Source: an uncultured Opitutia bacterium
GTDB lineage: Bacteria > Verrucomicrobiota > Verrucomicrobiia > Opitutales > Opitutaceae
Direction of reading: 5' to 3'
DNA: 37,005 bases
Assembly: GCA_903839035.1 (NCBI GenBank)
Contig: CAIMAQ010000059.1
Span: 1 to 37,005 of the forward strand
Shown: piece after piece, positions 9,068-37,005 of the stretch
Position numbering within the stretch: position 1 is the first letter of the stretch
Layout: the number at the start of each line of letters is the position of its first letter
The notes under the pieces: model-generated
Database searches by the model: none
The model's input: only the letters and a program-made list of their open reading frames with translations
What the model was told of the DNA's origin: nothing
Program-made: the position numbers and the translations under genes

Positions 9068-9088
9068 CGGGTCCAAGACCCGCCCCAC
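9068..9088. repeat. Perfect hairpin GGGCGGGTC/GACCCGCCC
   Basis: GGGCGGGTC (9067-9075) and GACCCGCCC (9077-9086 region) form a nearly loopless 9-bp stem between the metallophosphatase start and the broken PLDc_N gene stop. There is no T tract. The core CGGGTC...GACCCG recurs at 18606-18624. Confidence 0.5.
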
Positions 9089-9093
9089 CCGGC

Positions 9094-9276: not shown

Positions 9277-9370
9277 GCCTGCTATCGTGTTCCGCCGGTC
9301 GGGCTGGTTCCCAAGAAACGCGAGGTAGGGCTTGTCCTGCCCCCGCGTTCCCGGTCTGCTTTCCGCCGGT

Positions 9371-12522: not shown

Positions 12523-14123
12523 ACCGCCGCCTGCATCTCCTGGTCGCCCTCAGCCTGCTCGGCGCCGCCTACCTGGCCTCGGTGGTTTATATCGTGCACC
12601 TGCGGCGGACGGCCACCAACCCCCATGGTCCGCCGCGGCTGGTGATCCGCTTCGCCCACTGGCAGCTCGAGTCCGGGATGCGCGAGGCTTTCGACTTCAT
12701 CGCCAACCGCTACATGGCGCTGCACCCGGATATCCGCGTCGAGCAGTTCGCCGTGCCGGGTCGCGTTTACCGCCAATGGCTCAGCACCCAGCTGGCCGCC
12801 GGCACCGTCCCGGACCTCGTCTGCTTCAACTCCACCGACCAGTCCGATGTCGCCCAGCTGCCGCGGAATTTCTCCGCCATCACGCGCTGGATGGATGAGC
12901 CCAATCCGTACAACGCCGGCACGAAACTCGCCGGCGTGCCGTGGCGCCTGACGTTCATTGACGGCGGGCGGAACCGCGCCACGTACATTGACCAGTACCG
13001 CAACTATTACGCCGTCGGCCTGAGTTCGCACTCCATGCGGATTTTCTACAACAAGGACCTCCTGCGCGAAATCACCGGGAGCGACGCCCCGCCGGCGGAT
13101 TTCCGCAGCTGGCTGGAGCTCGGCAAGAAGGTCCGCGCCCATCGCCCGGGGCTCATCCACGTCGCCGGCGCGCACGACAATACGATCTGGCTGATGCCGA
13201 CGCTCATCAACCAGGCGATGGCCAAGTGGATCCTCACGGGCGACCACGAGCTGCGCTTTGCCGCCACGGGCTTCGATGTGTTCGGCGACATGGTGGCGGG
13301 CCGCTGGGATCTCCGCAGCCCGCCGCTGCAAACGTCGCTGCGCATCATGCAGGCGTTTGGCGGCGAGATGACTCCCGGATTCCTCCAGCTCGACCGCGAC
13401 AGCGCGATGCGGGCGTTCATGCGCGGCGAGGCGCTGTCCCTGCCCGATGGCACCTGGGATTACCCCACGATGCGGGAAACGGCCAAGTTCCAGATCGGCG
13501 CATTCCGCCTGCCGCTGCCGGGACCGGATGACCGCGAGTACGGCGGCTACGCGCTGCTGCCGGTTTCCGACGGCGGCGCCGGGACCGCCCTGCCGTTTTA
13601 CCTCGCCCGCCAAAGCCGGCATCCGGAGGCCGCCATCGATTTCCTGCGCTACGTGACGAGCTTGGAAGGCAACCGGCTCTTTTCTCAGGCCAGCCATTGC
13701 ATGCCTTCCGTCGAGGGCGTGGAGATCGCGCCGGAGCTGCAGCCCTTCCAGCAGAACAACAACGGCTACATCATCACGGACGTGCAAAACGGCCCCCAGC
13801 TGATCAACGGGGCTGGCGCGGCCTACACGCAACTGTTCGAGACCAACCTCCACGTGCTCTACGCTCCCGATGGCGGCGTGGAGGCCTACACCCGTGTGCT
13901 CGAGCGCCAGGTCCGCGCCATCGTGTTGTCAGACCTGCGCAAGCAGATCCACATCCAGCGCGAGAACCTGCGCCGCCGCGACACCGCCCTCGCCGCCCTC
14001 TCGTTCCTCGGACCCGCCGAGCAGGCCGAAAACATCCACCAGCAACCCAGTCAGCACCTCAACGAGCTCCACCTGTACCTGATGGAAACCAAGCTCGCGG
14101 CCGCAGCGAAGCCGCAGCCCTAA
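12519..14123 (+). CDS. Membrane-anchored sugar ABC solute-binding protein
   Basis: The 534-residue protein has one N-terminal membrane segment (HLLVALSLLGAAYLASVVYIVHL) without a lipobox cysteine, then an extracellular solute-binding protein family 1 fold: LVIRFAHWQLESGMREAFDFIANRYMALHPDIRVE, WLSTQLAAGTVPDLVCF, MRIFYNKDLLREI, GEALSLPDGTWDYP, GGYALLPVSDGG, and HPEAAIDFLRYVTS. Such proteins capture sugars or oligosaccharides for ABC importers. No permease or ATPase gene lies in the window, so its transporter must be encoded elsewhere or it works as a sensor. About 100 residues at the C-terminus, beyond the normal fold, are helical and charged. It is coupled to the TPR-like gene, and its TAA stop is the first part of a heptamer array. 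Confidence 0.85.
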   Translation: MNRRLHLLVALSLLGAAYLASVVYIVHLRRTATNPHGPPRLVIRFAHWQLESGMREAFDFIANRYMALHPDIRVEQFAVPGRVYRQWLSTQLAAGTVPDLVCFNSTDQSDVAQLPRNFSAITRWMDEPNPYNAGTKLAGVPWRLTFIDGGRNRATYIDQYRNYYAVGLSSHSMRIFYNKDLLREITGSDAPPADFRSWLELGKKVRAHRPGLIHVAGAHDNTIWLMPTLINQAMAKWILTGDHELRFAATGFDVFGDMVAGRWDLRSPPLQTSLRIMQAFGGEMTPGFLQLDRDSAMRAFMRGEALSLPDGTWDYPTMRETAKFQIGAFRLPLPGPDDREYGGYALLPVSDGGAGTALPFYLARQSRHPEAAIDFLRYVTSLEGNRLFSQASHCMPSVEGVEIAPELQPFQQNNNGYIITDVQNGPQLINGAGAAYTQLFETNLHVLYAPDGGVEAYTRVLERQVRAIVLSDLRKQIHIQRENLRRRDTALAALSFLGPAEQAENIHQQPSQHLNELHLYLMETKLAAAAKPQP

Positions 14124-14231
14124 TTTCGAATTTCGATCTTCGAATTTCGATTCTTCAATCCCAGCTGCCCTCATTCAGTCTCTCTCACCCCGCACTCCGA
14201 AATCGAAATTCGAAAATCGAAATTCGAAAAT
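14122..14231. repeat. Inverted heptamer-array element, locus 3
   Basis: The left arm (14122-14156) is AATTTCG, AATTTCG, ATCTTCG, AATTTCG, ATTCTTC in tandem. The right arm (14198-14231) is a 6-nt CGAAAT followed by CGAAATT, CGAAAAT, CGAAATT, CGAAAAT. CGAAATT is the exact reverse complement of AATTTCG. The left arm begins inside the TAA stop of the sugar-binding protein, and the right arm runs to 4 nt before the ATG of the second heparinase-like gene, leaving no room for a normal ribosome binding site. At roughly 70% AT it is an island in a GC-rich region. A transcript would fold into a long hairpin that could attenuate or insulate the downstream gene. Confidence 0.85.
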
Positions 14232-14235
14232 TCAA

Positions 14236-24806: not shown

Positions 24807-26357
24807 ATGTCCCGCCTCACCGCCCGCGTCCTCCTGTCCTCACTCTGCCTAGCCGCGCTTACCCGCCTGCCGGCTCAGGAACCGGCCCCGGCCCCCGCGC
24901 CCACCCCGGCCGACCTCCCCGCCGCCACCTCCGCCCCGGTCGTCGCCGGGCCGGACCTGTCCCTCGAGGAATGCATCAACCGGGTCCTCCAGAAAAACTT
25001 CAACCTCCGCGTCCAGGGCTTCAACACCGCCAACGCCCAGGAAAACCTCGTGATCTCAAAGGCTGGCTTTGACCCGACCTTCACCGCGATCGGCCAGCGC
25101 ACGCACACGCAGGGTGTGACGTCCTTCAACAATTCCCCCGGCACCAGCACGAGCTCGAGCTACCGGCAAGACCAGACCGACATCCGGGTTGGCGTCAACC
25201 AGACCATCCAGACCGGTGCGGCCGTCAGCCTGAGCGCCAGCGTCCTGCGCAGCGGCAACAACCTGCCCTCCACCACCCTCAATCCTTCCTACAACAGCGA
25301 CATCTCCCTCTCCGCCACCCAGCCCCTGCTCAAGGGCGCCGGCACCAAGGTCAATCGTGCCTCGATCGAGAACGCCAAGCTCGGCATCACCATCGCGAAC
25401 CTCAACTACAAGGGCAGCGTCCTCCAGGCCGTCCGCGACACCGAGGCCGCCTACTACACCCTCGCCTTCGCCCGCGGCCAGCGGGCCGTCAAGCAGCGCA
25501 GTCTCGAGCTCGCGCAAAAGCTGTACGACGAGAACAAGGTCAGGAAGAACACCGGCGTCGCCACTGACCTGGACGTGCTCACGGCCGAGGTCGGCGTCGC
25601 CACCGCCCAAAACGGTGTCGTGCTCGCCCAGCAGCAGGTGCGCAACAGCGAGGACAACCTCCTCGCCCTGACCGGCCAGTTCGAATTCACCACGCCTCCC
25701 GGGCCGGTCAGCTTCAGTGCCTACTACGACCCCGCCCCATCCATCGAGGACGCCTTCAATCACGCCCGCGACCTGCAGCCCACCTACGTCGCCGCCCAGT
25801 CGACCATCAAGCAGCTCGAACTCGCCGTCTATGTCGCCAACAACGGCCGCCTCCCGACGCTGAACGCCGATGCCGCCCTCGGCTTCAACGGCACCGACCG
25901 CTCGACCAACAGCTCGATCGACAACCTCAAGACCGGGGACAATTACAACTGGCAGGCCGACCTTTCCCTCAGCGTGCCATGGGGCCTGCGCGCCGACCGC
26001 GCCCGCGCCCGCATCGCCCTCAACAACCTCCACCAGGAACAGGCCCAACTCCAGTCCATCGAGCAGAACCTGCTCGTCCAGGTCCGCGCCGCCGTCCTCG
26101 CCGTCTCCACCAATATCGAGAGCGTCCAGATATCCGCCAAGACCACCGAGCTCGCCGAGAAACAGTACGAACTCCAAAAGGCCAAGTTCGACGCCGGTCT
26201 CTCCACCAGCCGCGACGTGCTGCAGTCCCAGACCGACCTCGAGACTGCCCGCGTCAACGAACTCTCCGCCAAGGTCAACCTGCGCATCGCCGTCGCCAAC
26301 CTGCACCAGCTGGACGGCTCCTCGATCGACCGCTTCCACATCGCCCTCGCCGACTGA
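24807..26357 (+). CDS. TolC-family outer membrane channel protein
   Basis: The 516-residue protein starts at ATG 24807 (MSRLTARVLLSSLCLAAL) with a signal peptide ending near LPAQ; longer in-frame reading to 24738 adds nothing. After a short A/P-rich linker come two outer membrane efflux (OEP) repeats: LSLEECINRVLQKNFNLRVQGFN...VISKAGFDPTFTAIGQ, then LEARDTEAAYYTL-like helices (AVRDTEAAYYTLAFARGQRAVKQRSLELAQKLYDENKVRKNTGVATDLDVLTAEVGVATAQNGVVLAQQQVRNSEDNLLALTG), and a second similar half. This is the outer membrane part of a tripartite efflux or type I secretion system. No adaptor or pump gene is adjacent, so the partner system is unknown. Confidence 0.9.
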   Translation: MSRLTARVLLSSLCLAALTRLPAQEPAPAPAPTPADLPAATSAPVVAGPDLSLEECINRVLQKNFNLRVQGFNTANAQENLVISKAGFDPTFTAIGQRTHTQGVTSFNNSPGTSTSSSYRQDQTDIRVGVNQTIQTGAAVSLSASVLRSGNNLPSTTLNPSYNSDISLSATQPLLKGAGTKVNRASIENAKLGITIANLNYKGSVLQAVRDTEAAYYTLAFARGQRAVKQRSLELAQKLYDENKVRKNTGVATDLDVLTAEVGVATAQNGVVLAQQQVRNSEDNLLALTGQFEFTTPPGPVSFSAYYDPAPSIEDAFNHARDLQPTYVAAQSTIKQLELAVYVANNGRLPTLNADAALGFNGTDRSTNSSIDNLKTGDNYNWQADLSLSVPWGLRADRARARIALNNLHQEQAQLQSIEQNLLVQVRAAVLAVSTNIESVQISAKTTELAEKQYELQKAKFDAGLSTSRDVLQSQTDLETARVNELSAKVNLRIAVANLHQLDGSSIDRFHIALAD

Positions 26358-26407
26358 GCGCAGTGTAAAACGCGCGGTTCCCCACGCGTTGCTCGGGCAG
26401 TTGCAGT

Positions 26408-26430
26408 CGCGGCGCCCTCGCCGCGGTTTA
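26408..26430 (+). terminator. Candidate terminator between tolC-type gene and miaA
   Basis: CGCGGCG (26408-26414) and CGCCGCG (26419-26425) form a perfect 7-bp stem with a CCCT loop, followed by GTTTA. It sits between convergent genes; the T run is short. Confidence 0.45.
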
Positions 26431-26469
26431 GACTGAGACACGGCCAAGTCGCCACCTCACCCGAAACCC

Positions 26470-27375
26470 TCACGCGCCGAACAGCCGCTCCAGCGTGAGC
26501 CCATCCGCCTTCACCTCCCGGTGCGGGGGCAGCTGGGTGCGAAACCACGTGCGCTGCTTCTTCACCAGCGCCCGCGTATTCTGCGCAATCACGCCCGCCA
26601 GTTCCGCCTCCGCCAGATTCCCGTCGAGAAAATCAATCGTCTCCCGGTAGCCAATCGCGCGCGCCGCACTCGGGTTCTCCCGCAATCCGTCCGCGCACAG
26701 CTGCTTCACCTCTGCCACCAGCCCGTCGCGCAGCATCGCCGCCACCCGGGCTTCGATTCGTTGGTCCAATTCCGCCGGGGGCCGCTCGATCCGGGTCAGT
26801 TCCACCGCCCAGCCGGCGAAAGGCCCCGGCAACCGGGCAAATTCCTCGGCCAATGCCGCCAGCGTCCGCCCCGACGCGAGGCAGCGCTCCAGCGCGCGGG
26901 TGACCCGCCGCGGATTCGCCGTGTCCAGCGCGCCGAGCCCTGCCGGGTTGAGCGTGTGCAGCCGGGCCACCGCCGCCGCCAGCCCCAATGAGGCTACTTC
27001 CGCCCGCAACGCCGCGGACACCGCCACCTCGTCCGCCACGGGTGCAAAGAAGCTCTTCAGGTAAAATCCGCTGCCACCCACCACCAGCACCGGCCGGCCG
27101 CGCATCAAAATTTCCTCCACCGCCGTCCGCGCCTTCGTCACATAATAGGTGACATCCATCCGGTCACCTACGCCGCAAATGTCGATCAGGTGGTGCGGCA
27201 CGCGCGCCTGCTCCGCGGCCGTCGGTTTCGCGGTGCCGCGGTTCATACCGCGGTAAAACAGCAGCGAGTCGCACGACACAATCTCGGCGCCCCGCGCCTC
27301 CGCCCAGCGCAGGGCCCATTCCGTTTTTCCGACGGCGGTACAGCCGGTCAGGACCTGAATCGTGGGTTTCATCAT
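26470..27375 (-). CDS. miaA: tRNA dimethylallyltransferase
   Basis: MiaA transfers a dimethylallyl group to A37 of tRNAs reading UNN codons, the first step toward ms2i6A. The 301-residue protein has the P-loop GCTAVGKTE (11-19), the DSLLFYRGMNRGTAKP segment (the D-S-QVYRGMDIGTAKP motif of the family), PHHLIDI, the VVGGSGFYLKSFF block, and the C-terminal SAARAIGYRETIDFL and NTRALVKKQRTWFR tRNA-binding motifs. The Walker A proline of GPTAVGKT is Cys here, which leaves the nucleotide-binding residues intact. Translation can start at 27375 or 27372 (MMKPT); GGTGAGGT lies immediately upstream and fits the second ATG better. Confidence 0.95.
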   Translation of the reverse strand: MMKPTIQVLTGCTAVGKTEWALRWAEARGAEIVSCDSLLFYRGMNRGTAKPTAAEQARVPHHLIDICGVGDRMDVTYYVTKARTAVEEILMRGRPVLVVGGSGFYLKSFFAPVADEVAVSAALRAEVASLGLAAAVARLHTLNPAGLGALDTANPRRVTRALERCLASGRTLAALAEEFARLPGPFAGWAVELTRIERPPAELDQRIEARVAAMLRDGLVAEVKQLCADGLRENPSAARAIGYRETIDFLDGNLAEAELAGVIAQNTRALVKKQRTWFRTQLPPHREVKADGLTLERLFGA

Positions 27376-27786
27376 ACCTCACCCAAAACATCTTTGCCCC
27401 GCCGCGCGAGGCGAACTATCCGCTCGGCGCTCGCCCCGTCGGTGCAGACCTGTTTCATCGTTAATCCCCGCTCCGCCGCGCGGCCCGAGTCAACCCCCGC
27501 GTGCAGGCCTTGGCCGCCGCCCGGGATGCCCGCGTGGACGATGGCCTGCTCGATCTCACGGCGCTCCCTCCAGTCTTAGTCCGGCCGGCCGGCCCCGTGA
27601 TCACCCGTCTGTTTACCGGCTCATTCGGTCATGCGTGGGGATGTGCTGCACCTGCGCGCGGAGCGTTTTGTGGTCGAGCGGTCCGCGCCCGGACTCGTCA
27701 CACCGACGGCGAGACCCACCCCGCGGGCCGGCGAGTTGAATTCTGCATCCGTCCCGCCAGCCTGCGCGTGCGCGCGCCGGCCCCGG
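27376..27786. other. 410-bp spacer with possible decayed coding sequence
   Basis: No recognisable gene fills the space between the divergently placed miaA start and the end of the REC-GGDEF gene. A plus-strand frame from about 27465 through GTG 27501 has GC-rich third positions for about 50 codons (VQALAAARDARVDDGLLDLTALPP and on), then loses that bias; a neighbouring frame from 27631 (MRGDVLHLRAERFVVERSAPG) takes it over. This looks like a gene remnant broken by a frameshift, but I do not recognise a family. No terminator with a T tract was found. Confidence 0.3.
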
Positions 27787-28689
27787 TCACAGATCGCTGA
27801 ACGCCACCGCGCGGTTCCGCCCGCGCGACTTGGCCGCGTACAGTGCCTTGTCCGCCGCCGCCACCAGCTCGGCGCCGGTGCTGGCATTGGCCGGCATCTC
27901 GGCCGCCCCTGCGCTGACCGTGATCTTGAGCGCTAGGTCCGGCCCGATCGGAATCGGGGCGCTCGCCACCGCGGCACACGCGCGCCGCGCCGTCTCCATG
28001 GCGGCCGAGCGGTCCGCCTGCATGATGATCAGCGCGAATTCCTCACCGCCGAAGCGCGCCGCGCGATCCACCGTGCGCAACCCGCCCGACACCCGGGCGG
28101 CCACCGCCTGCAGCACGAGGTCGCCCACCTGATGGCCGTGCGTGTCGTTGACGGACTTGAAATGGTCGATGTCCAGCATCACCAGCGAGAACGGGTGACC
28201 GAATCGCCGGGAGCGCTCCTCTTCCTCTGCGAGGATGCGGTCAAATTCGCGGCGGTTCAGCATGCCGGTCAGCTGGTCGCGCGTCGCCAGTTGCCGCAGC
28301 GCCTCGAGCGTCTCGGCCAGCTTCAGGGCGTAACGCAGCGAGCGCTCCAGGCTATGCGAGGAAATTTCGCCCTTCACCAGGTAGTCGAGCGCGCCGGCAT
28401 TCATCGCCTCGATATCGATTCGCTCGGAGGACTCCGCCGTCAGGAATACGATCGGCGTGTGCGAGCCGCCCGCCACCGCCTCGCGGATGAGTTCCAGGCC
28501 GTTGCGCTCCCCGAGCTGGTAATCCAGCAGGCACGCGGCGTGTTTGCCCTCGAGGAGCTGCGCCAGCCCCTCCTCGTACGTCTCGGCCCAGTCGAGGTCG
28601 AACGACTCCCCGCGGAAATTCTTGAAATGCGCCTGCGTGAGCCGGAATTGCAGCCGGTCGTCGTCAATGAGGAGGATGCGTCGTTTCAT
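27787..28689 (-). CDS. Response regulator with GGDEF diguanylate cyclase domain
   Basis: The 300-residue protein joins a receiver domain (1 to about 125; phospho-acceptor D56 in CLLDYQLG, acidic pocket DDD at 9-11, conserved K106) to a GGDEF domain (about 135-297). The catalytic motif is GGEEF (214-218), and an RXXD inhibitory site for cyclic di-GMP (R205-D208) lies exactly five residues before it. It should make cyclic di-GMP upon phosphorylation by an unknown kinase, with product feedback. Its ATG overlaps the TGA of the upstream epimerase (ATGA at 28686-28689), so the two are translationally coupled. A link between envelope or exopolysaccharide sugar synthesis and cyclic di-GMP is plausible but inferred. 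Confidence 0.95.
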   Translation of the reverse strand: MKRRILLIDDDRLQFRLTQAHFKNFRGESFDLDWAETYEEGLAQLLEGKHAACLLDYQLGERNGLELIREAVAGGSHTPIVFLTAESSERIDIEAMNAGALDYLVKGEISSHSLERSLRYALKLAETLEALRQLATRDQLTGMLNRREFDRILAEEEERSRRFGHPFSLVMLDIDHFKSVNDTHGHQVGDLVLQAVAARVSGGLRTVDRAARFGGEEFALIIMQADRSAAMETARRACAAVASAPIPIGPDLALKITVSAGAAEMPANASTGAELVAAADKALYAAKSRGRNRAVAFSDL

Positions 28690-29639
28690 GGGAGCACGGG
28701 GACCAGAGGTCCGGAAATCAGTTCGGCCAGCCCCGCGGCGACGCCGGTGCGCGCGATGAAGCCCAGCGCTTCCACCGCCGCCGCGGGATCGCCCAGCGAG
28801 TGCAGGATGTCCCCGGCCCGCGCCGGCCGGTGCTCAGGTGCGCCCACGCCGGGATGGGCGGCGGAGAAAATCCCGGCGAGTTCCAGCAGCGAGGTCGCCC
28901 GGCCGGTGCAGATGTTCGCGGCGCCGGAAGCGAGCCCGGGCTTGGTCGCCGCCAGCGCATTCGCGCGGGCCACGTCACGCACCGCGATGAAATCGCGCGT
29001 CTGGCGGCCGTCGCCGTAAAGCGTCACGGGTTTTCCCTCACGGTAATTGCGGGCAAAGATCGAGATGACACCCGAGTAAGGCGAGGCGGGATCCTGCCGT
29101 GTCCCGAAGACGTTGAAGTACCGCTGACAGCGCACGGTGAAACCGTAGCAGGCGCCGTGACCGAGCAGCAGGTCCTCGGACGCGAGTTTTGCCGCGCCAT
29201 AGGGACTGACCGGGCGTTTTTCCGCCGACTCGCGGATCGGCCGCTCGGTCGCATCACCGTAGATCGCGGCCGAGGAGGCAAAGACCACCCGGCCCACGCC
29301 ATGCAGCCGCGCCGCCTCGGCGACGAGCTGGCTGGCCAGGATGTTGAGGGAGAAATTCAGCTCCGGGTTGGCGATGCTTTCCTGCACGCTCACCAGCGCC
29401 GCCAGATGGATGATGGCGTCGGGCCGTTCCGCGGCCACGAGGGCCGCGAGCACGCCGGGAGCCGCCACGTCCTTCACCTGCAGGGCAAACGCCGGCGAGC
29501 GCAGCGCGGTCGCGAGATTTTCCTTCCGCCCGGTCCGGAAATTATCCACGCCGACGACCACATGCCCCTCGCCCAGCAGGCAATCGGTCGTGTGGCTGCC
29601 GATGAAGCCGGCGGCACCCGTGACGAGGATCTTGGCCAT
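28686..29639 (-). CDS. NAD-dependent nucleotide-sugar epimerase/dehydratase
   Basis: This 317-residue extended short-chain dehydrogenase has the NAD loop GAAGFIGSH (8-16), DNFRTGRKENL, HLAALVSVQES, the catalytic S in FASSAAIYGD, and YXXXK in SPYGAAKLASE, followed by RYFNVFGTRQDP, YSGVISIF and LYGDGRQTRDFIAVRDVA. The pattern is that of UDP-glucose 4-epimerase and UDP-GlcNAc/GlcA C4-epimerases (GalE/WbpP group); the RYFNVFG-RQDP-SPYSGVISIF segment fits the WbpP-like branch better than GalE proper. It would supply UDP-galactose-type or N-acetylgalactosamine-type sugars for surface polysaccharide. It overlaps the downstream REC-GGDEF gene by 4 nt. Exact substrate uncertain. Confidence 0.9.
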   Translation of the reverse strand: MAKILVTGAAGFIGSHTTDCLLGEGHVVVGVDNFRTGRKENLATALRSPAFALQVKDVAAPGVLAALVAAERPDAIIHLAALVSVQESIANPELNFSLNILASQLVAEAARLHGVGRVVFASSAAIYGDATERPIRESAEKRPVSPYGAAKLASEDLLLGHGACYGFTVRCQRYFNVFGTRQDPASPYSGVISIFARNYREGKPVTLYGDGRQTRDFIAVRDVARANALAATKPGLASGAANICTGRATSLLELAGIFSAAHPGVGAPEHRPARAGDILHSLGDPAAAVEALGFIARTGVAAGLAELISGPLVPVLP

Positions 29640-29683
29640 GGTGGCAGGGTTAGCGCCCCGTCCGGAGGGGGCAAGCCGTCATG

Positions 29684-30487
29684 TCAGCGGTGCGTCCCCG
29701 CCGCGAGGTCGGCCGTCACCGCGGCAAGCCGGGCGGTCATTTTATCCGGCGCCCCGAGATTTTCCCGGATGCAGTTGACCAGGGCGCTGCCCACGACGAC
29801 ACCGTCCGCCTGCGCGGCGACCTGGGCGACTTGCGACCGGGTGGAGATGCCAAACCCGACCGCGACGGGCAGCCGGGTGTGCGCCCGGATGCGGGCCACG
29901 GCCTCGGGAATGTTTGTCGCGGCATCCTTCCGCACGCCAGTGACCCCCTCACGCGAGACGTAATAAATGAAACCGGTCGTCGCCGCCGCGATCACCGGGA
30001 TGCGCGCATCCGGCGTGGTCGGCGCGATGATGAACACCGTGTCGAGCCCGTGTTTTTTGGCCGCCGTCATCACCTCACCCGCCTCCTCCGGCGGGAGATC
30101 CAGGGTCAGCATCCCGTCCAGGCCCGCGTCCGCCGCGGCCCGGACATAGGCGTCCACGCCATTCGCGAACACCAGGTTGTAATACGTGTAGAACACAAGC
30201 GGCGCGTCGGGAAACTCGGCGCGCAGGTGGCGCACCAGCTCGAGGACGCGCGCGGCGTTCATGCCGCCCTCCAGCGCCCGCTGGGCGGCCAGCTGGTTGG
30301 TCAGGCCGTCTGCCAGCGGATCGGAAAAAGGCACGCCGAGCTCGAGGATGTCTACGCCCCGGCCGAGCAGTGTGCGGCAGACGGCGAGCGAGGTCTCGAA
30401 ATCAGGGTCGCCGGCGCACACGTAGCCGATGAAGGCGGCGCGGTTTTGGGCTTTGGCCCGGGCAAAAGCGGAGGCGAGGCGGGACAT
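29684..30487 (-). CDS. trpA: Tryptophan synthase alpha subunit
   Basis: TrpA cleaves indole-3-glycerol phosphate to indole, which passes to TrpB. The start MSRLASAFARAKAQ (ATG 30487) gives 267 residues, the usual length. The TIM-barrel motifs are intact: AAFIGYVCAGDPD, ILELGVPFSDPLADGLTNQ with the catalytic E and D, the LDLPPEEAGE segment, FIIAPTTP, FIYYVSREGVTGVR, and the phosphate-binding VAVGFGIST and ADGVVVGSALV. trpB and other trp genes are not adjacent: its neighbours are an epimerase gene downstream and an EEP-family gene upstream, which is unusual as trpB and trpA are coupled in most bacteria. Confidence 0.96.
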   Translation of the reverse strand: MSRLASAFARAKAQNRAAFIGYVCAGDPDFETSLAVCRTLLGRGVDILELGVPFSDPLADGLTNQLAAQRALEGGMNAARVLELVRHLRAEFPDAPLVFYTYYNLVFANGVDAYVRAAADAGLDGMLTLDLPPEEAGEVMTAAKKHGLDTVFIIAPTTPDARIPVIAAATTGFIYYVSREGVTGVRKDAATNIPEAVARIRAHTRLPVAVGFGISTRSQVAQVAAQADGVVVGSALVNCIRENLGAPDKMTARLAAVTADLAAGTHR

Positions 30488-30652
30488 GCGAGGGTTTAGC
30501 TCAGAGGCATTCGCGCCGCGGTGCAATTGTCGTTTTCAGACCCGGCCCACCGTCGAAAACCAACGGGGTTTTGCCGCGAATGAGCCCGCCAACTAGCAGG
30601 CTCCGTGGATTCTCCATGTCAGCTGTGACACGGGTTTGGAAATACCGCCGGC

Positions 30653-31426
30653 CTACACCAGATCGAAATCCACCAGTACGGGGCGGTGATCGGACAACAT
30701 CACGCGCAGGACCTCGCTGTGCACCCTGCCGCAGGGCGGCGGCAGGAGTACGAAGTCGAGCAGACGCTGCGGCAGCGGCGAGGGGAACGTCTTTCCCTTG
30801 CGCGGGTGCAGCACGTAGTCGGCGTAATCCGAGAGATGGCTGAGCAGGGCCGCGGTCGCGTCGGGGCTGTGCCCGGGATTGTTGAAGTCCCCGCAGATGA
30901 TCGGTGGCAGGACCCAGTGCGGCCCGCGCTCGCGGAGTTTCTCGCGCAGCCACGCCAGCAGCCGGCCGATCTGCCGGATGCGGTGCTCGCGCGAGCCAAA
31001 GTGCAGGTGGATGTTGACGATCGGCACGATCCGCCCACCGACGTCGAACTCCGCAAAGAGGAACCCCTTTTCACCCACCGTGCGCAGCCCGAAGACCACG
31101 GTTTCGGTCGCCAGGATCGGGTGCCGCGACAGCAGTGCGTTGCCATAGCAGAGGTTGAGCAGGCCCTTCCGGCGCGTGTTGATGCCGAAAACAGCATGGG
31201 GAAAGCCGGCGTGCAGCCGCAGGTACTCGAGATGGTCGAAATTCCCCGCCCAGCGTGAACGCTCGTCGATTTCCTGCAGCGCCACGATGTCCGGCTGCAG
31301 CTTCACAATCAGCTTCGCGATCTTCCGCAGGTTGTTCTTCAGCTTTTGGCCCGAAGTCAGGCCCTGGATGGGGTTGAGCCCGCGGCCATGCGCGATGTTG
31401 AAGGTAAGGAGACGCAGACGCGGCAT
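30653..31426 (-). CDS. Endonuclease/exonuclease/phosphatase family protein
   Basis: This 257-residue protein has the EEP (DNase I-like) fold: LLTFNIAHGRG (first strand, metal-binding N), ALQEIDERS with the catalytic-type E, YGNALLSRHPI, IVNIHLHFGSREHRIRQI, ICGDFNNPGHS with the D-X-N pair, and the closing SDHRPVLVDF with D and H. All family catalytic residues are present. It lacks a signal peptide, so it is probably cytoplasmic; DNA, phospholipids and phosphorylated sugars are all known substrates of the fold. ATG 31426 was chosen because MPRLRLLTFNIAHG opens the domain directly. The spacer to trpA is 165 nt and shows no clear signals. Confidence 0.88.
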   Translation of the reverse strand: MPRLRLLTFNIAHGRGLNPIQGLTSGQKLKNNLRKIAKLIVKLQPDIVALQEIDERSRWAGNFDHLEYLRLHAGFPHAVFGINTRRKGLLNLCYGNALLSRHPILATETVVFGLRTVGEKGFLFAEFDVGGRIVPIVNIHLHFGSREHRIRQIGRLLAWLREKLRERGPHWVLPPIICGDFNNPGHSPDATAALLSHLSDYADYVLHPRKGKTFPSPLPQRLLDFVLLPPPCGRVHSEVLRVMLSDHRPVLVDFDLV

Positions 31427-31648
31427 GGCGTCCGCCAGCCTGAAACACGTCCCCCGTGGAGCAACGGCAAAGCGCCCGGCGTACCTGCACGGGGAAGGAT
31501 CCGACGTGAGCGATCGGAGCCCAATCAAGTCCCGCAAGCCACCCGCGCCCGCCGGTCGGGGGAGATTTGCAATTTGAGTTTCCGTCCGAATTACCGATTG
31601 GTCGCCACCCACCCCACCTGCCACCCGTGGCCCTTCCCGCGGAAGGGA

Positions 31649-31677
31649 TTGACAGTACCCGAGCCGCTCGTGAAGTT
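31649..31677 (+). promoter_or_regulatory. Possible promoter of tRNA-His
   Basis: TTGACA at 31649-31654 matches the -35 consensus. A poor -10 candidate (GAAGTT, 31672-31677) lies 17 nt downstream, 14 nt before the tRNA. The rest of the 265-nt spacer to the EEP gene shows nothing else that I can name. Confidence 0.35.
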
Positions 31678-31691
31678 TCCCGGCTCTTTAC

Positions 31692-31769
31692 GGCGGTCAT
31701 AGCTCAGTTGGTTAGAGCACTAGATTGTGAATCTAGGGGTCGCGGGTTCGAGTCCCGTTGGCCGCCCCA
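31692..31769 (+). tRNA. tRNA-His(GTG)
   Basis: The sequence folds as a complete cloverleaf: acceptor GGCGGTCA with TGGCCGCC (eight pairs, counting the extra G-1:C73 pair that identifies tRNA-His), D arm GCTC/GAGC, anticodon stem CTAGA/TCTAG with loop TTGTGAA (anticodon GTG), and a T arm with TTCGAGT. The 3' CCA is encoded (31767-31769). The 3' part is the integration site of a genomic island: bases 31745-31773 recur at 36881-36909. Confidence 0.97.
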
Positions 31770-31773
31770 TTTT
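31745..31773 (+). repeat. attL core (tRNA-His 3' end)
   Basis: This 29-bp sequence begins at the T loop (GGTTCGAG) and ends four T after CCA. It matches 36881-36909 at 28 of 29 positions; the difference is G at 31761 against A at 36897. Confidence 0.9.
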
Positions 31774-31849
31774 ATCGGTTTTCAGAGGTGAAACAGAGGT
31801 TGTTGGACAGGTGGTTTGGCGGCTAATCATCCGACCCAAGCCGGTCACA

Positions 31850-31873
31850 GGTTGGCACCGAGGTTGGCACGAA
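31850..31873. repeat. Tandem 12-bp repeats near attL
   Basis: GGTTGGCACCGA and GGTTGGCACGAA lie in tandem, 77 bp inside attL and 40 bp before the integrase start. A similar tandem pair is at the other island end (36744-36765). They may be integrase arm-type binding sites. Confidence 0.5.
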
Positions 31874-31913
31874 CGCCATTGACTCCCCGACGGGGAAATC
31901 TGGTCCAGTTTCT

Positions 31914-32636
31914 GTGCCATCTATCTCAGCTCAAAAGCGTAACGGAAATGTCGTCGGGTATTCCGTCTATCTCGGGAAGCAAGGAGACCAGCGGAGACAA
32001 CGACGGTTCTTCGTGCAGCGTTCGGACGCTGTGAAGTTCGTGGAGGAACGAAACAAGACACCCCTCCCCATCGGTGAGCTATGGGACCGGAAGGCTGAGA
32101 TCCTTTACAACCTTGAACGGCTTCGGCCCGTGAAAACGTCCCTGACGGACGTGGTCACGTATTACCTCACCACCAAGGTCAGCCAGTCCGACAAGAAACT
32201 GGCCGACGTGGCGACGGAGTTCTTGGCCGAGAAGAAGCAGATCGGTCGCTCCCAACTCTACGACTCAGCGATGAGATATTCATTCGGTCACTTCATGAAA
32301 TACATCGGAGGGGACCGACGGATGGCGGAAATCACACGGCAAGAAATCTCGGACTACATCTACGTCCAAAACAAGCACGTCCGACCCATCACCAAACGGA
32401 ACCTCCTCACCAACCTCAGCGTGTTGTTCAACTTTGCGGTGCGGAGGGACTACGTGGTGACGAATCCCTTGGTGAAGATCGACCGTCCCACGGTTCCGTT
32501 CGTCAAACCCCACGTCCTCAACCCCACCGACTTTGAAAAGCTCCTTCAAAAATGCTTCACGAAGAAATGGCATGACCGACTCGTCCTCTTCGTCCTCGTG
32601 TCTCACCATCCCCGACTCGGATTTCAGAGACCCTAG
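31914..32636 (+). pseudogene. Phage-type integrase, truncated before the catalytic domain
   Basis: From GTG 31914 the frame gives 240 residues: an N-terminal arm-type region (GNVVGYSVYLGKQGDQRRQRRFFVQRSDAVKFVEERN), a central SAM-like core-binding domain (LADVATEFLAEKK through NLSVLFNFAVRRDYVVTNPLVKI, about 90-195), and the very beginning of the catalytic domain (LNPTDFEKLLQKC...RLVLFVLV). Where SGLR with the first catalytic arginine is expected, the frame reads SHHPRLGFQRP and stops at TAG. The catalytic R, K, H, R, H and Y are all missing. The break lies near 32600, next to the end of the convergent recombinase, so insertion or deletion with that element probably removed the rest. This was likely the island's own integrase. 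Confidence 0.85.
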
Positions 32637-33727
32637 GATGCAGCGAGTGACTGCTCCGGAGCATACTTCGCCAGCCCGTGCGGATGGCACCTGGCATGCA
32701 CTTCACGCAACTGCGTGATCGAGACGGCGGTGTAAATCTGGGTCGTGTCCAATCGGGCATGACCGAGCAGCTCCTGGATCATGCGCAGGTCCGCCCCGTT
32801 TTCCATGAGATGGGTGGCACAGGCGTGGCGAAACAGATGGCAGCTGCCGGTCTTGCCGAGCTGCGCTTGGTCGATGGTTCTGCGGACCCAATTGCCGAGG
32901 TAATGCGGATTCAGGCGCCCGCCGTATCCCGAGATAAACAACGCGCGTTCAGTGCCGGTCACTTCCAGAAGCGGACGGCACTCTTTCAGATATCGCTCCA
33001 CCCAGGTAAGCGCGGCGGCGCCCAGCGGAGCGAGCCGGGTCTTCCCGCCCTTGCCCCGGCGCACCAGCACAACGCCGCGTTCGCGGTCCACATCGCCTAC
33101 GTCCAAGTTGACCATTTCCCGCCGGCGCAGACCCGTGCCGTAAAGAGTCTCCAGGATCGCCCGGTCGCGCACGCCGAGGGGATCAGTCACATCCGGCACC
33201 GCGAGGATTGTCTCAACCTCTCCCTGCGAGAGTGTGCAGGGCAAGCCGCGCGGTGGTTTTCTGGGCAAGTCGAGATCGGCAGCGGGATTGGCGGGCAGGA
33301 CATTTTCGCGGCAAGCCCACGCAAAGAACGCCTGCAGCGCGCCGAGATGGCTGCGCTGGGTCGCGATGGCGAGCGGCTGACCGTCGTCCTTGCGATAGGC
33401 CCATAGCCAGTCCTGGAAGTCCTCCAGCAACGGTTTGTCCACCTTTCCGGGTCGGTGCAGCCCCTTCGCCTGCGCCCAGGTCAGAAATGAGCGGAGAGCC
33501 CACACCCGGGCCGCGATGGTTTGAGGCGAGTAGGCCCGTACTTCCAGTCGGCCCAGCCAATGATCGACCAGACTCGCGAGGGTGAGCGAGTCGCGCCGGT
33601 CAAAACCGTCGGGCGTGGAGGCAAAGCCGCCTTTCTTCTTGGCCCATCCGCGCATGGCGCGGGCCCGCTCGATCCCGCGCAGTAGCTTGTCGTTCATCGG
33701 TTGAACCCTGACGAAGCGCGGGGGCAT
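32633..33727 (-). CDS. XerC/D-like tyrosine recombinase
   Basis: The 364-residue protein has a basic N-terminal extension (to about 45), a core-binding domain (SLVDHWLGRLEVRAYSPQTIAARVWALRSFLTWAQ), and a complete catalytic domain. Counting from the ATG at 33727, the active residues are R201 (TGLRRRE), K226 or K229 (GKGGK), H297 and R300 (CHLFRHACATHL), H323 (LLGHARLDTT) and Y332 (QIYTAV). It could also start at 33697 (MNDKLLRG). The enzyme looks competent to cut and join DNA. Proteins of this size on mobile DNA act as transposon resolvases or integrases. It faces the broken integrase and overlaps its end by 4 nt; it may be part of an element that disrupted that gene. Confidence 0.9.
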   Translation of the reverse strand: MPPRFVRVQPMNDKLLRGIERARAMRGWAKKKGGFASTPDGFDRRDSLTLASLVDHWLGRLEVRAYSPQTIAARVWALRSFLTWAQAKGLHRPGKVDKPLLEDFQDWLWAYRKDDGQPLAIATQRSHLGALQAFFAWACRENVLPANPAADLDLPRKPPRGLPCTLSQGEVETILAVPDVTDPLGVRDRAILETLYGTGLRRREMVNLDVGDVDRERGVVLVRRGKGGKTRLAPLGAAALTWVERYLKECRPLLEVTGTERALFISGYGGRLNPHYLGNWVRRTIDQAQLGKTGSCHLFRHACATHLMENGADLRMIQELLGHARLDTTQIYTAVSITQLREVHARCHPHGLAKYAPEQSLAAS

Positions 33728-33849
33728 TTATTAGGGACCAAACCACGGGAAAGGACATGGAGTCGGAGCCAAGTCCCGAGCGCCTGGCTGGACCTTGAAT
33801 AGTCCGGACGGGTCGCACTTGCGGCCCGAATTGGAGACTGCTTCAAGGG

Positions 33850-34504
33850 TACGCTATTACGGCACGAGGTACTATTCCCCGACCGCGACGCGGTACGTCT
33901 CGATCACCGCCTCCGCCGTCGGGCTGCGGTACAGGTCCAGGTTCACGACATAGCGCGAGTAGTCGTCCAGGAACGCGACGGCGTAGGCGTACTTGCCGCC
34001 CAATCGGAACGTGAAGATGTCCGACTGCCACATCTGGTTCGGCGTCGCCCGCTCAAAATGCCGCGGACGCACCAGGTTGCGGCGGGCCTTCACCCGACCG
34101 TTCATGAGGTCCGCCTCGTGGAGCGTCTTACGGACGGTCTCCGGGCTCGCCTCGAGGAAGAACCACCGGCGCAAGCCGTCGGCGATCCGTTTCACCCCAA
34201 AGAAGGGGTTTCCTCGCTTCAGTTCCACGATCTTCTGTTTCACCGCGCCCGGGTGTCGTCGTCCCGGCCGGGGCGACGACTCCCGCTTGAGCCCCAGCTC
34301 CCCGTGCTGGCGGTAATCCCTCAGCCACGCCCCCAGCGAGCTCGTGCTGACACCTGTTTCCTCACTCACCAGCTCCACCTTGAAGCCCTCTTCAAGGTGG
34401 AGCTTCACCGCTCGCAGCTTCTCCTCGTAGGTGTAGCGCTTGCGGCGGGGGCCGGTTCGGCCCCCGCGTTTCACGGTCTTTTCGACTGACTCTTTCTCGT
34501 CCAT
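33850..34504 (-). pseudogene. rve-type insertion sequence transposase, C-terminally truncated
   Basis: The 210-residue frame (33872-34504) has a helix-turn-helix domain (YTYEEKLRAVKLHLEEGFKVELVSEETGVSTSSLGAWLRDYRQHG, about 24-68), a second HTH, and the first part of an rve/DDE integrase core: W-Q-S-D162 and the second aspartate in FLDDYSRYVV (D180 or D181). It stops at VIETYRVAVGE before the third acidic residue; the normal family continues by about 100 residues. After the stop the reading (YLVP) still resembles the expected GVP turn for a few codons. The family is IS3/IS481-like. No matching terminal inverted repeat is seen on the truncated side, so the element cannot move by itself. Confidence 0.85.
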
Positions 34505-34536
34505 GGTAACACTCCTGTTTTCATTGGAGTGTTACC
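34505..34536. repeat. Perfect 11-bp inverted repeat at the transposase start
   Basis: GGTAACACTCC (34505-34515) and GGAGTGTTACC (34526-34536) are perfect inverted copies 10 nt apart, immediately upstream of the transposase ATG (34502-34504). The spacing would hide the ribosome binding position in a hairpin of the mRNA. This could limit transposase translation, or be the terminal repeat region of the insertion sequence. Confidence 0.7.
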
Positions 34537-34572
34537 CAATTGGCCCGTTAGTTCGTGTCTATGATCTGGTAG

Positions 34573-34635
34573 TTAGCACAAGGACAGGACGACGCCGAGG
34601 AGAAGGAGGGCGGCGAATCGGATGAGCGTTTTCAT
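34573..34635 (-). CDS. 20-residue hydrophobic peptide overlapping the thioredoxin-like gene
   Basis: The frame MKTLIRFAALLLLGVVLSLC begins at ATG 34635, overlapping the TGA of the upstream gene (34632-34634) as ATGA, which argues for real translation. The peptide is a basic start plus a hydrophobic core ending in LSLC, then TAA. It looks like a signal peptide or lipoprotein leader without a body, so it may be the remaining start of a small lipoprotein cut off by the insertion sequence that begins about 35 nt downstream. A complete mini-membrane peptide is the other option. The lipobox is imperfect (Leu where Gly, Ala or Ser is usual before Cys). Confidence 0.5.
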   Translation of the reverse strand: MKTLIRFAALLLLGVVLSLC

Positions 34636-35645
34636 TTTCCGGTCCCTCCCACTAGTTTGGTGAGCTTGTCCTTGAACTGGTCCAAGCCGTGCACGTCCTG
34701 CAGAATGCCACTGCGATCAATCAGGTAGATCGAGGGACAGCGGGTCAGGTGGAGCGCAGTTGCGATTGCTCCATCCGGCCCGGTTGGATCGTAAATCTGG
34801 ATGGAGTCAGGCGCGACCTTCGCCATTTGCGCCTGCGCGGCCGCCGAATCCGCATCGAGGTTCAAACCCACAAAGACCACCTGGGTGTTGCCCTGGGCGA
34901 TCAGGCGCTGAACCCACCCAGAGGAGCCAGTGGCCCGGCCGGTCCACGTGTAGAGCACAACCACCTTGCCGCGGAATTTCGACAGGGTCAGCGGCTGACC
35001 CGTGCTGGAAGTGGCTGCAAGATCGAGCGGGGTACCCACCATGGCCTCACGATCCAGGATGCGGCTGGCCGCGGCCTTGATCGCATCCGGGGCCTTGGAA
35101 TCCATCAGCTCAATCGCGAGCGGCCCGGCGGCGCCGGTCTCGGGCGAATCTTCGGCCAGCGCGAGGAGTGAGGCATATGGCTCTGTCTGGTTCGGGAATT
35201 CCGCGATCAACTTTCGAGCGAGGTCGGCGTAAGCCGCGAACTTCGCCTTCCGGTCCTTGCCGGTGGGTTTCAGGTCCAGCGCGGCGGCGCGCGCGACGAG
35301 TACGTAGCGGTCATATTCCGGGAGGTCGGCATCACCCCGCAGGGTGTTGACGAGTGTCGTCAGCCTGCTCGACTGGCTTCGGTCGCCTGATTCAGCGACG
35401 CTCAGGAGGGTCATGGCCTCGCTCGTCTGCGAGAGCGCCAGAGCCTGCGCCGCGGCTGCCGGATCAGCCGGTGTGGAAGCAGCGGTCGGAGGCAGGGTCT
35501 GGTCGGTCGAGGTCGCGGCGGCGGGTGACGTGGTTGCTGGCGCGGAAGCCGCTGGCGCCGCCGCGGGCGCACTCTGCGCACTGAGTGAAATCCAGCCGAT
35601 GGCCGAACTAAGCAACCAAGCGGCAACAGGATGAAGTATTTTCAT
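34632..35645 (-). CDS. Exported TlpA/redoxin-like protein lacking CXXC
   Basis: The 337-residue protein has a signal peptide (MKILHPVAAWLLSSAIGWISLSAQS), a low-complexity A/P/T region (26-70), a helical domain (about 71-200), and a C-terminal thioredoxin fold of the TlpA/AhpC-TSA type: GTPLDLAATSSTGQPLTLSKFRGKVVVLYTW, and the cis-proline loop CPSIYLIDRSG (P304). Where TlpA proteins have W-C-X-X-C the sequence is W234-T-G-R-A-T-G, so both redox cysteines are absent; C303 just before the cis-proline is the only cysteine. It is thus unlikely to be a disulfide reductase and may bind a partner or substrate. A 20-codon peptide gene overlaps its stop. It is cargo of the tRNA-His island. Confidence 0.8.
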   Translation of the reverse strand: MKILHPVAAWLLSSAIGWISLSAQSAPAAAPAASAPATTSPAAATSTDQTLPPTAASTPADPAAAAQALALSQTSEAMTLLSVAESGDRSQSSRLTTLVNTLRGDADLPEYDRYVLVARAAALDLKPTGKDRKAKFAAYADLARKLIAEFPNQTEPYASLLALAEDSPETGAAGPLAIELMDSKAPDAIKAAASRILDREAMVGTPLDLAATSSTGQPLTLSKFRGKVVVLYTWTGRATGSSGWVQRLIAQGNTQVVFVGLNLDADSAAAQAQMAKVAPDSIQIYDPTGPDGAIATALHLTRCPSIYLIDRSGILQDVHGLDQFKDKLTKLVGGTGK

Positions 35646-36042
35646 ACGCGTGGTGGGTCTGGGTCCGTCCGCCTGGCCGCGTCGTGAGGCGCATCCATGC
35701 AGGCGTGGGTAATTTTTCCGTGGCGGAAAATTGAGTGCTGGGGTTGGGGAAAGATAGCGGCGTCAGATTTGCACAGGGACCCCGCAGCCGAGACTCCGGA
35801 CACTTTTTCCGCCACGATCAAGTCTCGCGGCTACTTGGATTTATGTATCGATGAAAACCCGTGGAAACCCCGGCAATTAGCAGCTAAAACTCCCTTTTCC
35901 GGGCGTTCCGACCTATACTTAGATTTAAGTATCATGGTCTTTTCCCACAGTAAGATGGGGTCATGTAATTAAAATGTAAGAATCCAGTAAATTTATCCTA
36001 CCGGTTCGCGGCCCTTCGGTTTCAACGCCATCCTCGCCGACC
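35646..36042. other. 397-bp regulatory spacer in the island
   Basis: No convincing gene is present in this region between the divergent thioredoxin-like and response regulator genes. It becomes increasingly AT-rich toward the response regulator. It holds a hairpin TTTTCCG-TGG-CGGAAAA at 35714-35730, with TTTTCCGCCAC repeated in inverted form at 35805-35815, and two related dyads at 35832 and 35916. A TAAAAT at 35971-35976 could be a -10 element for the response regulator gene, without a clear -35 partner. Confidence 0.6.
35832..35937. promoter_or_regulatory. Pair of related dyads upstream of the response regulator
   Basis: TACTTAGATTTAAGTA at 35916-35931 is a perfect dyad (TACTTA, GATT, TAAGTA). 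A degenerate copy, TACTTGGATTTATGTA, lies at 35832-35847, and both continue with TC(G)ATG. The copies are 84 bp apart, eight helical turns, so they could bind a protein on one DNA face. Autoregulation by the NarL/FixJ-type regulator encoded downstream is a natural guess. Confidence 0.5.
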
Positions 36043-36702
36043 ATGCGCATCGTCGTCGTCGAGGACCATCTGATGTTCCGGGAGGTGCTGCGAAAATTCT
36101 GCGTGAACGAACTCGGTGCGCAGGTCGCCGGAGTGGCAGTCAGCGGGCGCGATGCAATAGGGCTTATTCGCAAGACCCAGCCTGACTGCGTACTGCTCGA
36201 CTGGCGTCTAGCGGATGGCGATGGATTTGAAGTCGTGCGATTCACGAAGGAACGCAGGCCCTCCACGCGGGTGCTGATACTCTCGGCCCATTGCGATGAT
36301 TACACTCTGTTTCGTGTCGAGCAGTCCGGTGCAGACGCCTTCGTCGACAAGGGGACCCAAAGCCTGGGGGTATTGCGGCGGGCATTCGCCGCCGTGCTCC
36401 GCGGGGAACACTTCTACTCCCAAGCCTATCAAGAGGCGCAGCGGGCGCGGGCGAGCGATCAGCACTTCTCAAAGATTCTCTCGTCCCGAGAGTGCGCAGT
36501 ACTGGTCCTGATTGGGCAGTCCCTCTCCGATGAGGATATTGCCCAACAGCTCGGCATCTCGCCGAACACTGCACAGACCCACCGCAGCCACATCTTGAGA
36601 AAACTTAATGTCTCCAGCTCGTTAAAGCTCGTGCAGTATGCGTTGGAGCATGGCTTCACGTCCTTCGCGGCCCAGCGGAACGGGAAGCAGGTGCTGCCCT
36701 GA
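36043..36702 (+). CDS. NarL/FixJ-type response regulator
   Basis: The 219-residue protein has a receiver domain (1 to about 120; acidic E7-D8, phospho-acceptor D53 in CVLLDWRL, and the conserved lysine in FVDKGTQ) and a C-terminal LuxR-type helix-turn-helix (about 147-205: LSSRECAVLVLIGQSLSDEDIAQQLGISPNTAQTHRSHILRKLNV). The HTH is fully conserved, including the T-Q-T-H-R-S-H-I-L-R-K-L recognition region. No histidine kinase is in the window, so it is an orphan regulator carried by the island. The chosen ATG starts the first beta strand (MRIVVVEDH). Upstream lie two related dyads that may be its operators. Confidence 0.93.
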   Translation: MRIVVVEDHLMFREVLRKFCVNELGAQVAGVAVSGRDAIGLIRKTQPDCVLLDWRLADGDGFEVVRFTKERRPSTRVLILSAHCDDYTLFRVEQSGADAFVDKGTQSLGVLRRAFAAVLRGEHFYSQAYQEAQRARASDQHFSKILSSRECAVLVLIGQSLSDEDIAQQLGISPNTAQTHRSHILRKLNVSSSLKLVQYALEHGFTSFAAQRNGKQVLP

Positions 36703-36743
36703 TTTGCACGTCAGGCCTCATTAGTTGCATCCCTTCGCAAGCA

Positions 36744-36765
36744 GGTTGCCCAAAGGTTGCCCAAA
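36744..36765. repeat. Tandem 11-bp repeats near attR
   Basis: GGTTGCCCAAA occurs twice in perfect tandem, 116 bp inside attR. It shares GGTTGSC with the tandem pair near attL. Confidence 0.55.
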
Positions 36766-36880
36766 AATCTGTTTTTGGCTTCAATTCGCAGCATCTTCCT
36801 GCTCTCATACGTGGGTCAGAAAACATTAACCTTCAACTAAGTCCGCGTTTTCTAGCAACTTAGCTTCAGGCGCCAAAGTT

Positions 36881-36909
36881 GGTTCGAGTCCCGTTGACCG
36901 CCCCATTTT
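36881..36909 (+). repeat. attR (partial copy of tRNA-His 3' end)
   Basis: This is the 29-bp repeat of 31745-31773 with one difference. It is preceded by unrelated sequence, so it is a partial tRNA end and not a second gene. Confidence 0.9.
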
Positions 36910-36911
36910 TG

Positions 36912-36929
36912 ATCGCCACAGGCGATTTC
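36912..36929 (+). terminator. Probable original tRNA-His terminator, displaced by the island
   Basis: ATCGCC (36912-36917) and GGCGAT (36921-36926) form a perfect stem with loop ACA, followed by TTT. It lies directly after attR, where the 3' flank of tRNA-His would have been before integration. The rest of the window to 37005 shows no gene. Confidence 0.5.
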
Positions 36930-37005
36930 CCTCGGCCAAAGCCCCCGTGGTCTGGAATTCGGCCCCGCGAGGGTTCCCTGACGGAAACTTCCCGGAAAAA
37001 CCCGC

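What the first reader, a model, noticed from the sequence alone, without database searches (positions are those of the whole stretch)
31745..36909. Compact tRNA-His island with regulator and redox-fold cargo
The 29-bp att repeats, integrase remnant and displaced terminator define exact borders. The cargo is small: an exported thioredoxin-fold protein and an orphan response regulator, transcribed divergently. This pairing has no obvious relation to phage or defence and may be a sensing module of its own.
Basis: partly seen in the sequence, partly recalled or inferred. Interest (0 to 1): 0.58.

Follow-up and report, generated by a model that had tools for sequence, protein, structure and literature searches.

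The report
Headless Rhs operon on tRNA island
A small, decayed piece of inserted DNA at a bacterial histidine-tRNA gene carries a gene switch and an exported redoxin-like protein that has lost its redox chemistry; in relatives this protein usually leads operons for giant, repeat-built proteins that are missing here.

Summary
The island is real: a genus member (G005) has the empty tRNA-His site, flanks 92-95% and 86% identical up to the 29-bp att, nothing between. The 'redox' protein has no active-site CxxC, like all 41 family members compared. In relatives its gene leads operons of giants: 36 of the 40 best relatives have a co-oriented ORF of 300 aa or more directly downstream, the other four lie at contig ends; 24 of 36 downstream slices match RHS_repeat. 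The own genome has no RHS_repeat match. A related regulator lies upstream in 10 of 57 relatives, divergent in six. The spacer holds two TAC-N10-GTA dyads with NarL-site geometry; among 12 genus genomes that pattern occurs only here and before the G006 counterpart. Best reading: regulator, operators and first gene of a YD-repeat operon without its giants. Binding and function are inferred.

The parts
31693..31769 (+). tRNA-His (GTG), integration target
   Evidence: ARAGORN; Rfam RF00005
31745..31773 (+). attL copy of the 29-bp repeat
   Evidence: single copy at the empty site of G005
31914..32636 (+). integrase remnant; homology to the G004 integrase ends at 32603, catalytic domain missing
32633..33727 (-). 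intact XerC-like tyrosine recombinase, 364 aa
   Evidence: (best NCBIfam model PRK01287, 359.9 bits against a cut-off of 371)
33821..33874 (+). 54-bp repeat, second copy at own C121:272-325 (94%)
33872..34504 (-). truncated IS481/IS3-like transposase; IS homology spans 33873-34581 (87% to an intact copy in G010)
34632..35645 (-). redoxin-fold protein without CxxC; in relatives the first gene of giant-protein operons
35832..35847 (+). operator-like dyad TACTTGGATTTATGTA
35916..35931 (+). operator-like dyad TACTTAGATTTAAGTA
36043..36702 (+). NarL/LuxR-type response regulator; Glu7, Asp8, Asp53, Ser81, Lys103 present
36725..36880 (+). non-coding island right end; similar sequence in own C121, G008 C24 and twice in G010 C1
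36881..36909 (+). attR copy of the 29-bp repeat
36912..36926 (+). hairpin beside att, possibly the displaced tRNA-His terminator
   Evidence: sequence, similar in L048; read by eye

Best explanation
A 5.1-kb decayed genomic island in tRNA-His of a bacterium of (probably) the family Opitutaceae. Its cargo is the control head of a YD/RHS-repeat giant-protein operon: a NarL-type response regulator, two operator dyads in the divergent spacer, and the operon's first gene, an exported redoxin-fold protein without the residues for thiol chemistry. In relatives that gene is followed, often with 4-bp overlaps, by giant Ig/Fn3/RCC1-type and YD-repeat proteins. Here they are missing; an IS fragment begins about 50 bp after the stop codon, then a XerC-like recombinase. 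Proposed mechanism: the phosphorylated regulator binds the TAC-N10-GTA dyads as a dimer and switches the divergent promoters; the CxxC-less protein goes to the cell envelope and serves as a non-catalytic partner (chaperone or adaptor) for making or displaying the giants. Shown: att repeats, empty site, integrase loss, gene order in relatives, absence of CxxC, conservation of the dyads. Inferred: DNA binding, direction of control, partner role, and that the giants once stood on this island or its source.
For: Empty site and borders. Decay. Family: 54 places (window included) in 40 of 252 genomes of the family. Of the 40 best relatives 36 have a co-oriented ORF of at least 300 aa starting between 324 nt before and 91 nt after the redoxin-like gene's end; the other four have 481-1023 bases to the contig end. 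With a limit of 500 aa it is 34 of these 40, and 40 of all 57. RHS_repeat in 24 of 36 downstream slices; giants of three loci carry He_PIG, fn3, RCC1, Ig, TSP3_bac and RHS_repeat. Contrast: of 17 weaker hits 7 hold a CxxC and none of the 7 has an ORF of 500 aa right downstream, against 6 of 10 without CxxC. No CxxC at the active-site position in 41 of 41. Regulator within 1.3 kb upstream in 10 of 57 relatives. Pattern TACWYRRATTTANGTA: 2 hits in the own genome, 2 in G006, none in the 10 other genus genomes; none in 100 shuffles of the window. General dyad with at least 7 of 8 pairs: 9 of 40 loci, 0.08 sites expected. In 5 of 8 loci of the closest paralogous regulators the same dyad form lies upstream of a neighbouring hybrid kinase. 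NarL prefers inverted heptamers 2 bp apart, e.g. the engineered site TACCCCTAAAGGGGTA (passages of PMC4549865). Own genome: no RHS_repeat match.
Against: A dyad of at least 5 pairs is present in only 6 of 11 loci with a regulator (window included), in 8 of 46 without one, and in 1 of the 17 weaker hits. The regulator is near the gene in only 10 of 57 relatives. 3 of 8 paralogue loci have no dyad. All 4 hits outside the family fetched lack a giant right downstream, so the arrangement was seen only inside the family. G020's regulator has Asn at the acceptor position (alignment). No sigma-70-like promoter in the spacer. The structure model is poor (pLDDT 57), so the partner role rests on gene order alone. 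No remnant of a giant was recognised on the island, so its loss is inferred. Spacing of the two dyads differs (84 bp here, 122 bp in G006).
Confidence: 0.6

Rival explanations
1. An independent two-gene sensing module: the regulator controls an envelope redox sensor or reductant, and islands spread the pair.
For: Divergent pair with open reading frames and intact receiver residues; the G006 pair has the same divergent arrangement.
Against: No active-site CxxC in 41 of 41 family members; in relatives the gene mostly leads giant-protein operons, also in G006; no tRNA in the fetched stretch of the 40 best relatives.
Confidence: 0.15
2. Junk: island remnants that happen to contain a regulator and a redoxin-like gene, both on the way to loss and no longer used.
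For: Broken integrase, broken IS, no giants, no RHS_repeat in the genome; in G010 a regulator remnant with a stop lies at a similar right end.
Against: Both genes are open over their full length and both dyads are kept.
Confidence: 0.2
3. The dyads are sites of some other regulator that controls these operons, not of the adjacent response regulator.
For: Dyads also occur in 8 of 46 loci without a regulator nearby.
Against: Same form beside 5 of 8 loci of the closest paralogous regulators; geometry equals that of NarL sites; within the genus the exact pattern goes with the pair in G000 and G006.
Confidence: 0.2

Closest known systems
tRNA-borne genomic islands of the tyrosine-integrase type
   Same: att repeat at the tRNA 3' end, integrase gene next to attL, empty site in a relative
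   Different: the integrase lacks its catalytic domain; a second, unrelated recombinase sits inside
RHS/YD-repeat (teneurin-like) protein operons
   Same: in relatives the same first gene is followed by RHS_repeat giants
   Different: giants absent here; a redoxin-fold first gene and an upstream NarL-type regulator were not found in the papers searched
NarL-family response regulators with 7-2-7 sites
   Same: receiver plus LuxR-type domain; 16-bp TAC-N10-GTA dyads
   Different: no nitrate link and no partner kinase on the island; binding not shown
Redoxin/TlpA/DsbE-type envelope thiol proteins
   Same: redoxin domain by Pfam; profile hits to DsbE/CcmG structures
   Different: no CxxC; long region before the domain, predicted helical with low confidence

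Membership tests
tRNA genomic island | direct repeats with one copy at the tRNA 3' end | tested here: met
tRNA genomic island | empty site in a relative | tested here: met
   G005
tRNA genomic island | functional integrase for this site | tested here: not met
   catalytic domain missing; the XerC-like enzyme is intact but its site is unknown
thiol-active redoxin/thioredoxin | CxxC at the active site | tested here: not met
   41 of 41 lack it
NarL-type response regulator | receiver domain with acceptor Asp plus LuxR/GerE domain | tested here: met
NarL-type response regulator | binds 7-2-7 dyads | not testable with these tools
   dyads of that geometry found; binding not shown
RHS/YD-repeat operon | RHS_repeat protein encoded at the locus | tested here: not met
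   no match among the five island ORFs scanned and none in the own genome
anti-phage defence island | match to defence-system models | tested here: not met
   four proteins scanned: only weak hits, the regulator's C-terminal part to CARF3 models (E 7.8e-07) and the integrase remnant to PglZ (E 0.0058)

The most novel reading that the evidence does not exclude
A clade of NarL-type regulators with TAC-N10-GTA operators controls a previously undescribed operon class of this family: an exported redoxin-fold partner protein without CxxC, followed by giant Ig-type and teneurin-like YD-repeat surface proteins. Islands move the control head apart from the giants, leaving a mobile regulator that could act in trans on other copies.
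Probability: 0.3. Interest if true: 0.68.

Novelty: new variant of a known kind. Interest (0 to 1): 0.48.

Why it matters
Giant YD-repeat proteins are widespread, mostly without known function or regulation (general knowledge). A conserved head gene plus a predicted operator would give a handle on how such operons are switched on and how the giants are exported or displayed in this family, and would be a case of the redoxin fold reused without redox chemistry. The island itself is ordinary and decayed.

Tried and rejected
An RHS scrap at about 33840-33890, suggested by a YYGTRYYSP reading, was rejected: nearly the same 54 bases recur at own C121:272-325, where that frame meets a stop at once (by eye). 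An integrase on the inner side of C73 was considered; Pfam gave no match, so it is not claimed. Structure prediction with three sequences gave pLDDT 57, too poor for a fold search; none was run. The related-loci scan with A1 gave only 3 loci. The 17 weaker redoxin hits are a mixture with ordinary redoxins and gave no strong dyad; they are reported. L160 (near copy of L159) was left out of the dyad count only. One search scored at most 8 candidates a genome, so its count is a lower bound. Paper searches: 'YD repeat'+thioredoxin+Verrucomicrobia, Rhs+Verrucomicrobia+Opitutaceae and 'RHS repeat'+'response regulator'+Opitut gave 0 papers; 'RHS repeat'+redoxin+operon 1 (iron stimulon of Bacteroidetes); 'YD repeat'+Verrucomicrobi 2 (only listings with starts of abstracts seen). 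'Not in print' is claimed for those searches alone. Reg_prop in the own genome: 0 matches, but the 24-position model also gives 0 in G003, G010 and G011, which hold homologues of the L184 kinase, so this is inconclusive.
Full report
1. The island is real. The window is a whole contig (G000:C59, 37,005 bases; genome 97.24% complete, 126 contigs). tRNA-His lies at 31693-31769 and a 29-bp repeat at 31745-31773 and 36881-36909, 28 of 29 bases identical. In G005, of the same genus, the site is empty: window 28002-31473 is 92.3% identical over 3,476 aligned positions, 31642-31773 is 95.5%, and 36881-37003, beginning at the same att, is 86.2%; the insert has no match (E 1e-5) in the 12 kb fetched. 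Own contig C73 continues the right flank, collinear with G005 at 90% over 2.5 kb. G+C is 67.2% left of the tRNA (25001-31690) and 60.3% inside.

2. The assembly holds two arrangements. The last 125 bases of the window (att and right flank) are identical to part of C73, but C73 has another sequence on the inner side of att. The window contig ends there, as expected at a branch of an assembly graph (inference). A mixed population is the simplest reading; a binning error is not excluded.

3. The island is decayed. The integrase ORF 31914-32636 matches only an N-terminal SAM-like domain. G004 has a 351-aa relative at its tRNA-His with the catalytic domain; homology ends at window 32603 and no significant C-terminal match was found in the window. 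Next come an intact XerC-like recombinase (at E <= 1e-60 one copy in the own genome and relatives in 4 of 56 others), a 54-bp repeat, and a truncated IS481/IS3-like element (33873-34581), 87% identical to an intact one in G010. About 50 bp separate the IS end from the stop codon of the redoxin-like gene.

4. The right end recurs. Sequence like window 36725-36880 is found in own C121 (84%), in G008 next to the same att (77%), and twice in G010 C1 (74-76%), there next to what looks like the 3' end of another tRNA (by eye, no tRNA gene in the fetched stretch). At one G010 copy a regulator remnant (aa 128-218, 58% identical, one stop) lies close by, so the link of regulator and right end may be older than this insertion (inference).

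5. The cargo protein has a signal-peptide-like start (by eye) and a redoxin domain. The three-sequence model is weak (pLDDT 57, pTM 0.37) and shows helices at 62-202 before the domain. At the active-site position no CxxC is present in any of 41 members (window and 40 relatives); three (L149, L158, L162) have one Cys just before the conserved Trp, and L155 has a CxxC near its N-terminus. Profile hits in the PDB are led by DsbE/CcmG (E 8.5e-06).

6. What it does in relatives. A profile of five members finds 54 places in 40 of 252 genomes of the family, window included. In 387 genomes sampled from the phylum 9 match at 1e-15, 5 of them of this family, window included. The best 40 of the 53 non-window places were fetched first. 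36 of these 40 have a co-oriented ORF of at least 300 aa at or overlapping the gene's end; the other four have 481-1023 bases before the contig end. With 500 aa as limit it is 34 of 40. RHS_repeat was found in 24 of 36 downstream slices of up to 500 aa. Giants of three loci carry He_PIG, fn3, RCC1, Ig, TSP3_bac and RHS_repeat. The remaining 13 places and 4 from outside the family were fetched next. 7 of these 17 ORFs hold a CxxC and none of the 7 has an ORF of 500 aa or more right downstream; of the 10 without CxxC, 6 do. None of the 4 from outside the family does. The own genome has no RHS_repeat match; 5 of 12 genus genomes have. No tRNA was found in the fetched stretches of the first 40; the other 17 were not scanned.

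7. The regulator. A related regulator lies within 1.3 kb upstream in 10 of 57 relatives, divergent in 6 (in L152 with a small ORF between) and co-oriented in 4. The G006 pair (regulator 55%, redoxin-like protein 46% identical over the alignment, 55% in the best local match) is divergent and followed by a 2103-aa gene and a YD-repeat gene. The window's receiver keeps Glu7, Asp8, Asp53, Ser81 and Lys103; G020's has Asn at the acceptor position. In the genus the next best relatives of the regulator are in G010 (58%, not beside a redoxin-like gene) and others at 45-50%, so the regulator is not confined to this pairing.

8. The operators. The 397-bp divergent spacer holds TACTTGGATTTATGTA (35832-35847) and TACTTAGATTTAAGTA (35916-35931); the G006 spacer holds two of the same kind. 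TACWYRRATTTANGTA was drawn from these four. It hits the window twice, with 0 hits in 100 shuffles, and in 12 genus genomes hits only these two places, 2 and 2. The general form TAC-N10-GTA was then sought from 400 bases upstream to 100 inside in 40 loci (39 relatives and the window). With at least 7 of 8 pairs it occurs in 9 of 40 loci, 0.08 sites expected from the rest of the same loci; with at least 6 in 11 of 40 (0.23); with at least 5 in 13 of 40 (0.75). Without window and G006, from which the form was drawn, this is 8, 10 and 11 of 38. In the 17 weaker hits there are none with 6 pairs and 1 with 5. By regulator: 6 of 11 loci with one (window included) and 8 of 46 without one have a dyad of at least 5 pairs.

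9. A second setting of the same regulator clade. Eight of the closest genus paralogues were fetched (L183-L190). In 5 of 8 the regulator stands beside a convergent gene of about 1,290 aa. The one scanned (L184) is a hybrid sensor kinase: HisKA, HATPase_c, receiver, Reg_prop; the other four are 56-67% identical to it. In each of the five a dyad of form TACCGG..TTCCGGTA lies just upstream of the kinase and is the only dyad with at least 6 pairs in some 16 kb. L183, L188 and L189 have none. The engineered NarL site used in print is TACCCCTAAAGGGGTA, two heptamers 2 bp apart (PMC4549865, passages seen). The geometry is the same; binding by this regulator is not shown.

10. Verdict. The finding's anatomy is mostly right, its reading partly. 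The island is ordinary and broken. Its cargo is best read as the control head of a YD-repeat giant-protein operon without its giants. That the giants were ever on this island is not shown, and the partner role of the CxxC-less protein rests on gene order alone.

Noticed in passing
L052, L053, L055, L057, L051/L123 compared with L048, L054, L056, L060: A segment of about 135 bp holding tRNA-His and its upstream region is inverted relative to its flanks in G002, G011, G009, G007 and apparently G008, but not in G000, G005, G006, G010 and G003; G001 and G004 not determined. It may be an invertible tRNA locus.
   Followed up: partly
window 36881-37005 and L049 (own contig C73): Two different inner sequences join the same right flank at att (125 identical bases), suggesting strain variation at the tRNA-His site in the sampled population.
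   Followed up: partly
window 33821-33874 and L118 272-325: 54-bp repeat with two copies in the own genome; its 28-base core was not found in 56 relatives with up to 3 mismatches. It lies between unrelated sequences; possibly a recombination site of the XerC-like enzyme.
   Followed up: partly
L163 about 3932-16200 (G010:C1 67931-80199): Two copies of the island right end 12 kb apart enclose several kinase-like and regulator-like ORFs, perhaps an island at another tRNA.
   Followed up: no
window 35719-35730 and 35805-35816: Perfect 12-bp inverted repeat CGTGGCGGAAAA / TTTTCCGCCACG with 74 bp between, in the same spacer as the dyads.
   Followed up: no
L184, L185, L186, L187, L190: Conserved locus of a NarL-type regulator, a hybrid kinase of about 1,290 aa with a TACCGG..TTCCGGTA dyad, and a long neighbour of about 1,000 aa that had no Pfam match in L184, the only one scanned.
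   Followed up: partly
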